A stretch of 7,320 nucleotides of DNA from Dehalococcoidales bacterium (GTDB lineage Bacteria; Chloroflexota; Dehalococcoidia; Dehalococcoidales; UBA5760): NCBI GenBank assembly GCA_028710655.1, contig JAQTTS010000103.1:1-7320 (forward strand), written 5' to 3'. This document shows positions 1,444-6,772 of the stretch, one piece after another. A program made the position numbers and the translations under genes. Position 1 is the stretch's first letter. Each line of letters begins with the position of its first letter. A model generated the notes under the pieces. It did no database searches, was not told where the DNA came from, and saw only the letters and a program-made list of their open reading frames with translations.

Positions 1444-1977
1444 TTAGTCTTTCTTCATGTGACTGGGCCCGATTTCCGGATAAAGAGTAAAGAGAGGATT
1501 GGACCAATATTCGTCCGCGGCCTCGATTCCCTTCTCCGTCAGGCGGTAGTAGGTCCGCTCCGGTGCCGGTGGGTAGTTGTCCTGGATGGCGGATGGCTCG
1601 GTTTTATCGGTTGTCTCTACCCATCCCAGTCTCTTAAGCACCCCGAAGTACATCAGGAAGGAGTGGTAACGCATGTGAGTAAACTTGCGAGATAGCCTTT
1701 TCAGCTCTCGCTCGTAGATTCTATCCGCCTGCTCTTCGGTAACATCAGCACCGCTTACCACCATGCGGCTGATGATTCTTTCTGCCCGCTCCCTGGCGGT
1801 AGCCCGAGCCAACGCTTCCTTGTATTCGAAGTTGATGTCAGCCTGGGGAGCGCCTTTCTGCGGGTCGATGACGCGAGAGCCTTCGGGGCCTTTACCCAGA
1901 AGAAACTCACGTATGAACCAGCCGCAGCCGAACGGCCTCAAAAATCCTCCCCTGTTTGGCTTTAGTTCCAATGCCAT
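1444..1977 (-). CDS. Winged-helix-like phage protein, paralogue A
   Basis: This 177-residue protein has no family I can name with certainty. The N-terminal 50 residues are conserved with paralogue B (NRGGF, RPFG, GWFIRE, GPEGS, GAPQADIN) and are followed by a charged helical stretch (EYKEALARATARERAE). The C-terminal half, about residues 96-160, has the look of a winged helix: a helix with MRYHSFL, then YFGVLKRLGWVE, then a wing ending YYRLTEKG. That suggests nucleic-acid binding, as in PadR- or MarR-type folds, but this is inference. Its ATG lies 5 nt after the metallopeptidase stop, and the nearest SD-like sequence (AAAGGA) is rather far upstream, so translational coupling is likely. About 130 of 177 residues are identical to paralogue B at 4060-4629 on the opposite strand, with no gaps. 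Confidence 0.85.
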   Translation of the reverse strand: MALELKPNRGGFLRPFGCGWFIREFLLGKGPEGSRVIDPQKGAPQADINFEYKEALARATARERAERIISRMVVSGADVTEEQADRIYERELKRLSRKFTHMRYHSFLMYFGVLKRLGWVETTDKTEPSAIQDNYPPAPERTYYRLTEKGIEAADEYWSNPLFTLYPEIGPSHMKKD

Positions 1978-3952: not shown

Positions 3953-4066
3953 ATGGCGGACAGTAACGAAGTCCGGGCATCGATACTGTCCGCCATTTTC
4001 AAAGCTAACGCGGACACTAAGGACGGAGCGGACGGTTTATTGAGAAAGAAGGCTATGAGATGGTAA
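3953..4066 (+). CDS. Tiny ORF, 37 residues, coupled to the winged-helix gene
   Basis: The ATG at 3953 follows GAGGTGG by 5 nt and opens a 37-codon frame (MADSNEVRASILSAIFKANA, ending KKAMRW). Its stop TAA at 4064-4066 overlaps the start of paralogue B at 4060, so it may act as a coupling leader as well as a peptide. The sequence suggests a short amphipathic helix. No homologue is recalled. Support is the strong SD, the gene packing and the overlap. Confidence 0.55.
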   Translation: MADSNEVRASILSAIFKANADTKDGADGLLRKKAMRW

Positions 4067-4629
4067 TGGAACTTCGACCGAATAGAGGCGGTTTCGCCAG
4101 ACCCTTTGGGGCAGGCTGGTTTATCCGGGAGTATCTCCTGGGGCATGGACCGGAAGGCTCGACTCCCATAGACCCGGAGCGAGGCGCTCCTCAGGCGGAT
4201 ATCAATTACGAGTACAAGGAAGCCTTAGCTCGGGCTACGGCGAGGGAACGTGCCGAAAAAATCATCAGCCACATGGTGGTAAGCGGCGCCGATGTTACCG
4301 AAGAACAGGCGGAAAAGATACGTGAGCGCGAACTGAAAAAGGTCTCCCGAAAATTCACGCGGATGAGGTATCATTCCTTCCTGGTATATTTCGGGGTGAT
4401 CCGGCGTCTTGGCTGGGTGGAATTAACGTCAGAATCTGAAAGCTCTTCTATTCAGGATAATTATCCTGATGCCCCCGACCGCGCCTACTACCGTCTGACA
4501 CAGGCCGGTAGACAAGCAGGCGATGACCTCTGGTCGAATCCCCAGTATGCCCTTTACCCTGAAAATGGCCGCAGCCACCAATCGAAGCAGACTGGCTGGC
4601 CGCATCGTAAAGTAAGAACCACAAAGTGA
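4060..4629 (+). CDS. Winged-helix-like phage protein, paralogue B
   Basis: This 189-residue protein matches paralogue A (1444-1977, minus strand) without gaps over 177 residues, at about 73% identity by my count. Differences are mostly conservative and cluster in the wing region (about residues 122-175). Paralogue B has 12 extra C-terminal residues, basic and Lys/Arg/Thr-rich. The predicted fold is the same: a conserved N-terminal block (NRGGF, GWFIRE, GAPQADIN), a charged helix, then a winged-helix-like end with YYRLTQAG. The start at 4060 is supported by alignment with the start of A and by a GAAAGAAGG stretch upstream; the in-frame ATG at 4066 is an alternative. It is the last gene of the plus-strand operon. 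It may be a nucleic-acid-binding phage protein, possibly forming hetero-oligomers with A (inference). Confidence 0.85.
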   Translation: MVMELRPNRGGFARPFGAGWFIREYLLGHGPEGSTPIDPERGAPQADINYEYKEALARATARERAEKIISHMVVSGADVTEEQAEKIRERELKKVSRKFTRMRYHSFLVYFGVIRRLGWVELTSESESSSIQDNYPDAPDRAYYRLTQAGRQAGDDLWSNPQYALYPENGRSHQSKQTGWPHRKVRTTK

Positions 4630-4662: not shown

Positions 4663-4950
4663 CTACTTGACCTTGGTACGCCTGCCTATCAAAGCTTTGG
4701 TTAGTTGATAGTCGGTCTCCAGGTTTAGCCAGAAACGCGCCGGGATTTCCGGCATGACTTCCTCAAGCTGAAGGGCCGTGTCTGCCGTAATCGACTTCTT
4801 CCCTTTAATTATCTCGTTTATCGCGTTAAGCGGCCGTCCCATGCGCCTGGCGAGCTCCGTCTGGGAGATTCCCCTTGCCTCAATCTCCTCTGCGAGATAC
4901 TCACCAGGAGGAATAGCAACGTCGGGATAAGTATCCGTCTTAGTCACCAT
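4663..4950 (-). CDS. higA: HigA-family antitoxin, XRE-type HTH
   Basis: The 95-residue protein has the HigA layout: an N-terminal segment with PPGEYLAEEIEARGIS, an XRE-type helix-turn-helix at about 29-50 (QTELARRMG, then NAINEIIKGKKSIT), and the hallmark LNLETDYQL near the end. It would bind HigB and, as the complex, repress its own promoter. The ATG at 4950 is chosen because GGAGG (4961-4957) sits 6 nt upstream. A longer frame from ATG at 4965 would place that SD inside the gene. It overlaps the toxin stop by 11 nt, giving the toxin-first order typical of higBA. No clear terminator is seen in the 33 nt between its stop and the convergent paralogue B gene. Confidence 0.92.
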   Translation of the reverse strand: MVTKTDTYPDVAIPPGEYLAEEIEARGISQTELARRMGRPLNAINEIIKGKKSITADTALQLEEVMPEIPARFWLNLETDYQLTKALIGRRTKVK

Positions 4951-5236
4951 GGTAATCCTCCACATCCAGAATACGAACTCTGTCTTCCTCGACCCTTTCC
5001 ATTATGAGCCGGAAGTTTCCGGTAAGGGTAATCGCATACTGTCCGGCTCGATTCCCTTTCAAGGGATGCAACCTCAACGCCCGGTGCCCGAATAGCTGGG
5101 TGAATTTGTCTGTGGCTTTAAGGATCGCCAGCCGCTGGATATACTTCCGGCCAATCGGAACGCCAAAAAGGCGACTAGCCTCTGCTAGACTAGCACCTGC
5201 ATCAGCCAGCCGATTCGTTGCGAACTCGATATGCAC
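4940..5236 (-). CDS. higB: HigB-family toxin, RelE/ParE superfamily
   Basis: This 98-residue protein fits the plasmid-maintenance killer (HigB) family. It has an N-terminal helical pair (ADAGASLAEASRLFG, then KYIQRLAILKATDKFTQLF), then LRLHPLKGNRAGQYAITL, TGNFRLIMERVEED and the terminal ILDVEDYHG. These are the beta-sheet and C-terminal DYH signature of ribosome-dependent mRNA interferases. The length is normal for the family and no key segment is missing, so it is probably functional. The start is GTG at 5236; an in-frame stop lies four codons upstream, and AGGGTG in the leader can serve as SD. A strong promoter lies immediately upstream. Known role: cleaves translated mRNA when HigA is lost, giving stabilisation, stress response or phage defence. 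Confidence 0.92.
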   Translation of the reverse strand: MHIEFATNRLADAGASLAEASRLFGVPIGRKYIQRLAILKATDKFTQLFGHRALRLHPLKGNRAGQYAITLTGNFRLIMERVEEDRVRILDVEDYHGD

Positions 5237-5284: not shown

Positions 5285-5585
5285 GCAGTCAGGCTTTGCG
5301 CAATGCCAATTTTCCGGTAACGCCCATTATTCGTCCCTACCTTTCGTCCTGTTTTATGTTTTTTAAGTTCTTTCGGAGAGGGGGAGGGGGTGACAATTTA
5401 GCTAATGCTTGAAATATCTCAAAAGCGTTTTTTGTTGGACAATGAAGCTGGAAACACAAAAACACGAAGCACCTTAAAAACTGAATACGCCGTGTCCAGA
5501 GCCTTGCCTTGTGGCTGGCAATAAAAATGCCCTGGGACTAGCTGACACTAGCCAGGGCAAATCTAACAAAGGGAGCGTGTCCACA
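5285..5585. other. Gene-free leader region between higBA and the sigma-like gene
   Basis: I find no convincing gene in these 300 bp. The stretch holds T-rich segments (5353-5374), a purine-only run with two G5 blocks (5375-5390), a small hairpin TTGCC/GGCAA (5504-5521) and a larger hairpin at 5528-5559. CGTGTCCA occurs twice (5491-5498 and 5576-5583). It presumably contains the promoter and 5' leader of the sigma-like gene, but no good -35/-10 pair is visible. Confidence 0.6.
5528..5559 (-). terminator. Strong hairpin, terminator-like on the minus strand
   Basis: TGCCCTGG (5528-5535) and CCAGGGCA (5552-5559) pair perfectly. The stem continues with CTAG/CTAG after a 2-nt bulge and closes on a 6-nt loop. 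On the minus strand the stem is followed at once by TTTTTATT, a classic rho-independent layout. On the plus strand it would be a hairpin in the mRNA leader, 26 nt before the ATG at 5586, without a T tract. Confidence 0.5.
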
Positions 5586-6242
5586 ATGCTAGACTATCAG
5601 GAATATACCATAGACGGTAACGGCTATCAAGGCAACGGCAACGGTAATGGCAACGGTAACGGCTACAGCCATTTACAGGGCGATTGGGCTACATTCTATA
5701 AGGTAGCAAAGGGCTTCACCCACAGGGTAAGACCAGAGGATAGACAGGACTTTCTACACGACCTCTTGCTCACGATGGCGAAAGTCAAAGCCAAATATGA
5801 CGCTATCGGTAAGGAATTGACGGAAGGGGGATTAGTCAGAATAGCCTGTTACGATGTTGCCCAATACTGGAGAGAGAAGTTCAAGCGGATTAACGGCACC
5901 GATTGCGGGCGGTGTAGTCAGGAACAACGCCGTAAATGCAAAGGAAAAGACCTGTATCGTGAGTGTCCCAAAGCTATCAGGATAGACAGCCTTGACCGGC
6001 TGATAACCGATGGTGAAGGCAATCAGGTTGAGCTTCACCAGATGATAGCCGATGACCACGCCGTTGACGTTTCGGCAAGGCTTGATGCCAGGCTTATCCT
6101 GGAAAGCTATCCTCACAAGTTCATCAGGATAGCCTATAAGAAGTATGCGGGGTATCCGCTTACCCCTACCGAAAAAACCTACCTTTACAGGCAAAGAAGC
6201 AAGGCTCATAAAAATTCTCAAAAAAGTCTGGTTTTCGTGTAA
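5586..6242 (+). CDS. Sigma-factor-like protein with four-cysteine insert
   Basis: This 218-residue protein resembles a small sigma-70-type factor. Residues 33-101 look like region 2 (WATFYKVAKGF, EDRQDFLHDLLLTMAKV, then LVRIACYDVAQYWREKFKR). Cysteines 107, 110, 118 and 127 follow as a CxxC-x7-C-x8-C cluster, a likely zinc site absent from ordinary sigma factors. SLDRLITDGEGN and MIADDHAVD resemble the linker seen in sigma factors. Residues about 170-210 (FIRIAYKKYAGYPLTPTEKTYLYRQR) could be a region-4-type HTH. A Gly-Asn repeat (16-26) lies near the N-terminus. ATG 5586 is preferred because GGGAG lies 10 nt upstream; an in-frame GTG at 5511 has no SD and would read through a hairpin. Core-polymerase binding is inferred. 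It may act on element or phage genes. Confidence 0.75.
   Translation: MLDYQEYTIDGNGYQGNGNGNGNGNGYSHLQGDWATFYKVAKGFTHRVRPEDRQDFLHDLLLTMAKVKAKYDAIGKELTEGGLVRIACYDVAQYWREKFKRINGTDCGRCSQEQRRKCKGKDLYRECPKAIRIDSLDRLITDGEGNQVELHQMIADDHAVDVSARLDARLILESYPHKFIRIAYKKYAGYPLTPTEKTYLYRQRSKAHKNSQKSLVFV
5631..5663 (+). repeat. Hexanucleotide GGY-AAY repeat encoding Gly-Asn
   Basis: Five consecutive GGY-AAY units plus a final GGC encode a Gly-Asn run in the N-terminus of the sigma-like protein. Unit length keeps frame, so copy-number changes would alter only linker length. Confidence 0.8.
6184..6212 (+). promoter_or_regulatory. Candidate internal promoter for the downstream RNA region
   Basis: TTTACA (6184-6189) and CATAAA (6207-6212) are separated by 17 bp, matching five and four positions of the consensus. 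It lies inside the 3' end of the sigma-like gene. Initiation near 6219 would give a separate transcript of about 500 nt ending at the first terminator. Such matches also arise by chance in A/T-rich coding sequence. Confidence 0.3.
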
Positions 6243-6409
6243 CTTTTTGGCGGTTTTTACCGATGTATACAGTGAGAGGACTGAAAACCTCTTGCAGGAC
6301 TTGACCAGTGCTAGCGTATCGCAGGCTGGGGCAAGGCTCTGGACAATTGAATATCGGGACTTCACTTATGGGCAAAGACTTGCCCTGTTTTGAGGATACC
6401 CCTTACAAG

Positions 6410-6461
6410 CCGACTTGTGGACTGGCTCACGGGCTAAAATGATGGGCTAGTCCACAAGCGG
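6410..6461 (+). repeat. Longest hairpin of the RNA region
   Basis: The stem CCG-(A)-CTTGTGGACTGGC pairs with GCTAGTCCACAAG-CGG: 16 pairs, one G-U and one bulged A, closing a 19-nt loop. The core CTTGTGGACT/AGTCCACAAG is a perfect 10-bp inverted repeat, and no T tract follows. Confidence 0.75.
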
Positions 6462-6623
6462 TAGTGCCAGCGGGTTGCGGGCTACTGATAAAACGCTTGA
6501 CGGGGGTAGGGAGTAAAAACAGGGTGATAATTGGTCAAAGCTAAGGGAAAGCCTTACCCTGTGAAAACCAGTGAGCTGTAAAGGCAAGCTGGCAAGCCTA
6601 ACCGATGCGGGGTAAGTCTTACC

Positions 6624-6648
6624 GATAGCCAATGAAACGATGGCTATC
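6624..6648 (+). repeat. Perfect 8-bp hairpin in the RNA region
   Basis: GATAGCCA and TGGCTATC pair perfectly around a 9-nt A-rich loop. It directly abuts the GGTAA/TTACC hairpin, so the two could stack coaxially. Confidence 0.65.
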
Positions 6649-6677
6649 AAATGAAGTCCAAAGGGTAGAAAGTTACA

Positions 6678-6721
6678 GGCAAGGTAGCCTCTAATGCAGT
6701 AGGGGTTGCCTTGCCTTTTTT
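6678..6721 (+). terminator. Rho-independent terminator 1
   Basis: The 14-nt arms 6678-6691 and 6702-6715 pair fully if G-U pairs are allowed, with GGCAAGG/CCTTGCC at the base. Six T follow at once (6716-6721). It ends the candidate RNA or the sigma-like mRNA. Confidence 0.85.
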
Positions 6722-6735
6722 GTTGCCTAAATTTA

Positions 6736-6772
6736 GGGCAGCCAGGAGATAAGAATCCTGGTTGCCCTTTTT
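6736..6772 (+). terminator. Rho-independent terminator 2, in tandem
   Basis: GGGCAGCCAGGA (6736-6747) pairs with TCCTGGTTGCCC (6756-6767) over 12 positions with one G-U, around an 8-nt loop. Five T follow (6768-6772). It backs up the first terminator. On the minus strand the downstream sequence is only A/T-mixed, so it would be weaker for the convergent operon. Confidence 0.85.

What the first reader, a model, noticed from the sequence alone, without database searches (positions are those of the whole stretch)
6243..6721. Gene-free 480-nt stretch packed with stem-loops and closed by a terminator: candidate new structured RNA
At least six well-formed stems, including a 16-pair one, follow each other after a sigma-like gene and end in a textbook terminator. 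No plausible protein is encoded. Recurrent GGCAAG and CTTGCC words could allow switching between folds. I could not match it to tmRNA, RNase P, SRP RNA, group I or group II introns. Size and phage-type context recall GOLLD and ROOL RNAs, but no core is recognised.
Basis: partly seen in the sequence, partly recalled or inferred. Interest (0 to 1): 0.75.

Follow-up and report, generated by a model that had tools for sequence, protein, structure and literature searches.

The report
Mobile-element RNA with rRNA-operon-like architecture
The gene-free stretch is a real, conserved folded RNA from mobile elements of Dehalococcoidia bacteria; it looks like the tail of a transcript laid out like a ribosomal RNA transcript (same boxA signal at the front, front and tail complementary), and we found no earlier description of it.

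Summary
Window 6243-6721 is non-coding, folds far better than shuffled sequence (z -7.2), ends in a terminator (a second follows) and has no Rfam match. Nine other Dehalococcoidia loci carry a homologue without a gene in it. It is not free-standing: it is the 3' part of a unit starting at 5469 with the boxA that precedes 16S and 23S rRNA in related genomes. Just after boxA, 16 nt (X) are exactly complementary to 16 nt of the RNA (X', 6330-6345). Such complementarity of 10 nt or more is present in 37 of 44 relatives examined, with paired changes. Two doubly bulged hairpins (H1, H2) covary strongly. In 42 of 60 loci a DnaN-like gene takes the RNA's place. RNA-only loci fall in two separate places of the tree of the upstream sigma-like gene. 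Best reading: an rRNA-operon-like boxA plus leader-trailer layout used by an integrative element, with a new structured RNA as trailer. Processing, protein partners and function are inferred; there were no expression data.

The parts
5469..5487 (+). boxA-like element GCACCTTAAAAACTGAATA
   Evidence: Conserved upstream of the sigma-like gene; the same kind of element lies 67-75 nt before 16S rRNA in 7 of the 30 loci fetched (an eighth, L141, by other 16S marks) and 65-74 nt before a 23S 5' mark in 4
5493..5508 (+). X, 5' strand of the proposed leader-trailer helix
   Evidence: 16-nt exact complement of 6330-6345; mean pairing probability 0.99 in the folded transcript
5529..5558 (+). HL, leader hairpin before the ribosome-binding site
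   Evidence: Folds alone; similar hairpins with changed stem letters in the alignment; no formal covariation count; absent in part of the dnaN group
5586..6242 (+). sigma-like gene (218 aa) with a Cys-rich insertion
   Evidence: 826 homologues at E 0.001; no significant Pfam, PHROG, NCBIfam or PDB sequence match; low-confidence model resembles sigma factors weakly
6274..6293 (+). H0 hairpin GAGAGG/CCTCTT
   Evidence: Present in the 7 of 8 sequences of A5 that are complete there; one compensatory pair in L017
6305..6329 (+). H1, doubly bulged hairpin
   Evidence: 92.2% of cells paired, covariation score 0.629 vs 0.202 shuffled
6330..6345 (+). X', 3' strand of the proposed leader-trailer helix
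6346..6353 (+). rest of GGACAATTGAATA (second boxA-like sequence, or trace of the dnaN start)
   Evidence: Conserved in the RNA-only sequences of A2 and A5 although no shared frame is seen there
6414..6448 (+). P3 hairpin CTTGTGGACT/AGTCCACAAG
   Evidence: Stem kept with other letters in several of 10 homologues, small or not in the predicted fold in others
6459..6487 (+). H2, second doubly bulged hairpin
   Evidence: 96.7% of cells paired, covariation score 0.491 vs 0.287 shuffled; inside the DnaN-like reading frame in relatives
6677..6721 (+). T1 intrinsic terminator
6736..6772 (+). T2 second terminator
   Evidence: a like pair stands right after a DnaN-like stop in L096 (read by eye)

Best explanation
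The stretch is the structured, non-coding 3' part of a roughly 1.25-kb transcript of a Dehalococcoidia integrative element. Order: boxA, X, hairpin HL, sigma-like gene, H0, H1, X', P3, H2, two terminators. Shown by sequence: the fold, its conservation, covariation of H1 and H2, conserved X:X' complementarity, and the likeness of the boxA to the rRNA boxA of related genomes. Inferred: that one transcript spans the unit; that boxA recruits the host NusB/S10 antitermination complex; that X:X' forms an rRNA-like leader-trailer helix which loops out the sigma-like gene and couples the two ends, tuning translation and/or giving RNase III a cut site that frees a stable RNA of about 0.4-0.45 kb; that H1 and H2 bind a protein, possibly the sigma-like protein itself. 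In relatives with a DnaN-like gene X' lies within about the first dozen codons of that gene, so the same pairing would sit on its translation start. RNA-only loci keep the RNA control module without the gene.
For: Fold z -7.18; z -4.5 to -8.7 in homologues L003, L004, L017, L019, L023, L035 (25 shuffles each). H1: 30 distinct sequences, 92.2% of cells paired, covariation 0.629 vs 0.202 shuffled and 0.04-0.12 slid. H2: 30 sequences, 96.7%, 0.491 vs 0.287 shuffled and 0.08-0.16 slid. The inner Y-R pair, left free by the search pattern, is C-G or T-A in 65 of 65 distinct hairpins. Over nine of the twelve pairs G-T outnumbers A-C 22:0 and 27:2, marking the sense strand as the one that folds. X:X': 44 loci, mean longest exact match 14.1 nt, at least 10 in 37; controls 6.4 (shuffled X, max 11), 7.0 (sigma-like gene, 3 of 70 at 10 or more), 6.9 (further downstream, 0 of 38). 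In 25 distinct duplexes pairing runs over about 16 positions with several standard pair types at many of them. boxA before 16S and 23S. RNA-only in two separated clades of the gene tree.
Against: No transcript data. boxA function, processing and protein binding rest on sequence alone. X and X' are themselves conserved: X of one locus against the downstream part of another locus still averages 11.6 nt (own 14.1), and much of the paired change is one switch between the RNA-only and the dnaN type; the 25 duplexes were chosen for a match of 10 nt or more. In 7 of 44 loci X:X' is under 10 nt; in L035 its predicted probability is 0.23. In 11 further rows the boxA pattern was not found. For H2 the number of pairs with a change on both sides (78 of 500 shuffles as high) and of further pair types (227 of 500) is not above shuffles; for H1 the former is 23 of 500. 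HL is absent in part of the dnaN group. The sigma assignment has no sequence support. Only 10 RNA-only sequences.
Confidence: 0.62

Rival explanations
1. Decoy RNA. The RNA-only module copies the control region of the DnaN-like gene (H1, X', H2) and acts in trans, titrating the protein or 5'-leader RNA that controls dnaN in sibling elements of the same cell.
For: Same ordered parts as the dnaN leader. RNA-only and dnaN-type loci occur in one genome: G312 (L017, L070) and G182 (L035, L023, L089). Terminators would free the RNA.
Against: X of the RNA-only group differs from X of the dnaN group, so cross-pairing would be partial; no protein partner is known.
Confidence: 0.18
2. Decayed remnant: a dnaN-like operon that lost its gene, with hairpins surviving by chance.
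For: Terminator pair and start-region sequence shared with dnaN loci; pieces of the RNA occur alone (L093-L095, L178).
Against: No DnaN similarity is left (tblastn), yet H0, H1, X', H2 and T1 persist although 41 of 45 sequence pairs are at most 80% identical, and the module occurs in two clades of the gene tree.
Confidence: 0.08
3. DNA-level element: H1 and H2 are folded single-strand DNA sites for recombination, transfer or replication near the end of the element.
For: Neighbouring tyrosine recombinases; an RNA 3' piece next to a tRNA-3'-end-like fragment in L093; bulged hairpins recall integron attC sites (recalled).
Against: The strand bias of wobble pairs fits a folded sense strand (it would also fit that strand as single-stranded DNA), while boxA, X:X' and terminators point to RNA; H2 lies inside a gene in relatives.
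Confidence: 0.07
4. Independent ornate RNA like GOLLD or ROOL, working as its own particle.
For: Large folded RNA in a mobile context.
Against: No Rfam match; parts are shared with an mRNA leader and tied to the upstream gene.
Confidence: 0.05

Closest known systems
Bacterial rRNA operon leader (boxA and leader-trailer helix; PMC10250234, abstract and introduction read)
   Same: Same kind of boxA as in the related genomes' 16S/23S leaders; complementary flanks around the first unit, 12-19 nt in 33 of 44 loci
   Different: Encloses a protein gene, not rRNA; X' lies in a large structured trailer with H1/H2
boxA control of non-rRNA genes (suhB and a Citrobacter koseri gene; PMC5725501, passages read)
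   Same: boxA in the 5' leader of a protein-coding transcript
   Different: Here boxA is about 100 nt before the start codon and comes with a long-range complement and a 3' RNA domain
Lambdoid nut sites (boxA plus boxB; described in the introduction of PMC10250234)
   Same: boxA with hairpins in a mobile element
   Different: H1/H2 lie about 0.8-1 kb from boxA; no N-like protein identified
GOLLD and ROOL RNAs (abstract start of PMC12286853 seen in a search listing)
   Same: Large structured RNA in mobile or phage-like DNA
   Different: No Rfam match; different architecture

Membership tests
rRNA-type boxA leader | boxA sequence of related bacteria's rRNA leaders | tested here: met
   no genome is held for the window itself
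rRNA-type boxA leader | boxA binds NusB/S10 and modifies RNA polymerase | not testable with these tools
   needs binding and antitermination assays
leader-trailer helix | complementary sequences flanking the enclosed unit, kept by paired changes | tested here: met
   37 of 44 loci with 10 nt or more; pair types
leader-trailer helix | RNase III cleavage | not testable with these tools
   needs an RNase III assay
GOLLD / ROOL / other Rfam families | match to the family covariance model | tested here: not met
   window: one sub-cut-off hit outside the stretch; 7 relatives: two sub-cut-off hits on the L035 terminators
lambda-type nut site | boxB-like hairpin close to boxA bound by an N-like protein | tested here: inconclusive
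   HL follows boxA in the window but not in part of the dnaN group; protein binding not testable
sigma-70 family (upstream gene) | regions 2 and 4 of sigma factors | tested here: inconclusive
attC-like ssDNA site | recognised as folded DNA by a recombinase | not tested
   no such assay or model run

The most novel reading that the evidence does not exclude
A mobile element has copied the whole logic of an rRNA operon: host boxA, a leader-trailer helix and RNase III release. It uses this to make a stable non-coding RNA with two protein-docking hairpins, and that RNA module can replace a DnaN-like gene and move between element lineages.
Probability: 0.25. Interest if true: 0.88.

Novelty: new variant of a known kind. 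Interest (0 to 1): 0.72.

Why it matters
boxA-Nus control and leader-trailer helices are known from rRNA. Finding both signatures, conserved, around a protein gene with a covarying RNA trailer in mobile elements would extend rRNA-type transcription control to a new use. The H2 hairpin kept inside a reading frame, and the exchange of gene for RNA, give a natural comparison for separating RNA function from protein function.

Tried and rejected
GOLLD/ROOL and other Rfam families: no match. Plasmid hits fall on the GGTAACGG-type repetitive coding stretch of the sigma-like gene; phage hits are 27 nt in two records of one Salmonella phage; both discarded. The protein had no match in phage records by tblastn. 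Viral collection: pattern scans gave 0 and 1 loci, the protein scan 1, the alignment scan 0. Genome-contig scan: 4 loci. The hairpin pattern alone is not specific: 100 of 393 genomes carry it, many as single copies; pairs downstream of the gene are the informative ones. ARAGORN found no whole tRNA in L093, so the attachment-site reading there rests on a tRNA-3'-end-like fragment seen by eye. The predicted model of the upstream protein is poor. A weak likeness of H1/H2 to the 16S 530 loop (recalled) was not pursued. In one search the script's T1 label in L017 and L180 fell on an earlier T-run, so what it prints as T2 there is T1; their second terminators were read by eye.

Full report
What was checked. 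The interval 6243-6721 was read, folded, searched against Rfam and compared with other genomes. It folds to -193.6 kcal/mol against -152.7 for shuffles (z -7.18, 0 of 100), holds no convincing ORF and has no Rfam match. It ends in terminator T1, and a second terminator, T2, follows at 6736-6772. No whole genome is held for the window.

Homologues. DNA search of 393 genomes of the class of G002 gave 17 with a match at E 0.01 or better, several of them only hairpin or terminator pieces. A covariance model of the 5' part (R1) matched 5 of 156 genomes of one order, 1 of 15 of a second and 3 of 84 of a third, one of these only a remnant (L178); several of these genomes are the ones the model was built from. 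In all, ten RNA-only sequences were compared: the window, L003, L004, L097, L017, L019, L035, L023, L180 and L177. The compared pieces are 323-454 nt long, cut at the first T-run past a fixed point (before T1 in L017 and L180; L097 lacks its 5' end), and pairwise identities are 53-95%. No reading frame runs through all of them.

The upstream gene. The 218-aa protein has 826 homologues at E 0.001 (120 listed), two of the listed ones named from Dehalococcoides mccartyi. Relatives occur in 41 of 393 class genomes, in some of them several copies. Of 60 loci examined (rows of one script), 42 have a DnaN-like reading frame downstream (one of them the query itself), 8 rows are RNA-only (L004 counted twice), and 10 are truncated or neither. 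The DnaN-like protein of L102 matches Pfam DNA_pol3_beta_2 above its cut-off and NCBIfam dnaN below its cut-off.

Two covarying hairpins. By pattern, H1 lies 41-76 nt after the gene's stop, in L081 20 nt. H2 lies at 313-372 nt in most dnaN-type loci, at 274-275 in a subgroup whose H1 lies 289-290 nt before H2 at the end of the gene, and at 195-227 nt in RNA-only loci. The consensus is stem, bulged G, CY, bulged A, GC, five-base loop, GC, RG, stem. Counts on 30 distinct sequences each gave 92.2% and 96.7% of cells paired, with covariation scores above all 500 shuffles and above every slid control. Two cruder measures do not exceed shuffles for H2 (pairs with a change on both sides, 78 of 500 as high; further pair types, 227 of 500), and the first is 23 of 500 for H1. 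The inner Y-R pair was free in the search pattern and is coupled in 65 of 65 distinct hairpins. Wobble pairs are G-T, hardly ever A-C (22:0 and 27:2 over nine pairs), which marks the sense strand as the folding strand. In dnaN-type loci H2 lies inside the reading frame, so the pairing is kept in a coding sequence.

boxA and the leader-trailer helix. About 100 nt before the gene start lies a conserved GCACCTTAACAACTGAATA-type element. A search of nine genomes with up to two mismatches gave 45 places against 12 for the reversed pattern. Among the 30 of these fetched as loci, the element lies 67-75 nt before the 16S start in seven and 65-74 nt before a 23S mark in four; L141 is an eighth 16S case by other marks; others lie at the sigma-like loci and a few elsewhere. 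It is therefore taken as the rRNA boxA of these bacteria. Directly downstream, X is complementary to X' after the gene: 16 nt exactly in the window. In 44 loci the longest exact complement averages 14.1 nt, 10 or more in 37 and 12 or more in 33; shuffled X gives 6.4, the sigma-like gene 7.0 and sequence further downstream 6.9. Against other loci's downstream sequence X still gives 11.6, because both strands are conserved; the gain of own over other loci is the part due to paired change. There are 21 distinct X strings of 10 nt or more. In 25 distinct duplexes, about 16 positions (from -10 to +5 around the TTGC core) are mostly paired, with two or three Watson-Crick types at many of them (for example T-A, C-G and A-T at -7; C-G and G-C at -3), although these rows were chosen for their match and much of the change separates RNA-only from dnaN loci. 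Single examples within each type are L017 and L063. In the folded window transcript X:X' has mean probability 0.99; for L017, L019, L036, L004 and L035 it is 0.77, 0.84, 0.999, 0.99 and 0.23. In E. coli rRNA such leader-trailer helices are cut by RNase III and are needed for active 30S subunits (PMC10250234, abstract and introduction read).

Evolution. On a tree of 52 proteins the six RNA-only rows fall in two separate places, each clade starred and each inside a starred clade with dnaN-type rows; at least two changes are forced. The second clade is two loci of one genome (G182). The RNA has therefore been exchanged with dnaN, or moved between element lineages, at least once. Neighbouring genes include tyrosine recombinases (L169, L170, L173) and ParB (L170), and an excisionase-type protein in the window. 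A 3' piece of the RNA next to a tRNA-3'-end-like fragment in L093 fits an integration boundary, but ARAGORN found no complete tRNA there.

Novelty. Ten literature searches showed no description of this RNA. What I saw were listings, plus passages of PMC11109978 and PMC5725501 and the abstract and introduction of PMC10250234. The one Dehalococcoides RNA motif seen (rdhA motif, PMC11109978) lies upstream of reductive dehalogenases, a different context.

Noticed in passing
window 4663-5236, - strand: HigA/HigB-like toxin-antitoxin pair (HTH_3 above cut-off; HigB-like toxin below cut-off, PHROG toxin match).
   Followed up: no
window 1444-1977 (-) and 4060-4629 (+): Two copies of one gene family without a Pfam family above cut-off; in L169, L170 and L173 a relative (by eye) sits beside a tyrosine recombinase upstream of the sigma-like gene.
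   Followed up: partly
L154 (G088:C1:1033497, - strand): boxA-like CCTTAACAACTCAATA upstream of a gene whose start looks, by eye, like a reductive dehalogenase twin-arginine signal; a second similar site lies 1.7 kb away.
   Followed up: no
L093 2785-2887, L094 2681-2730, L095 716-826, L178: Isolated pieces of the RNA (3' terminator part, or 5' half); L093's piece abuts a tRNA-3'-end-like fragment: perhaps scars of element integration or decay.
   Followed up: partly
dnaN-type loci, e.g. L036, L059, L102: A leader hairpin loop CTTGCCC can also pair with GGGCAAG of X', so the dnaN start could switch between a local and a long-range partner (seen in sequences; not counted).
   Followed up: no
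L004 3406-4059: The sigma-like gene is broken into two open pieces in this copy, while its RNA keeps its parts.
   Followed up: no
window 5396-5489: The region around and upstream of boxA is more alike in distant relatives L025 and L036 (77%) than the matched part of the gene (about 67%).
   Followed up: partly
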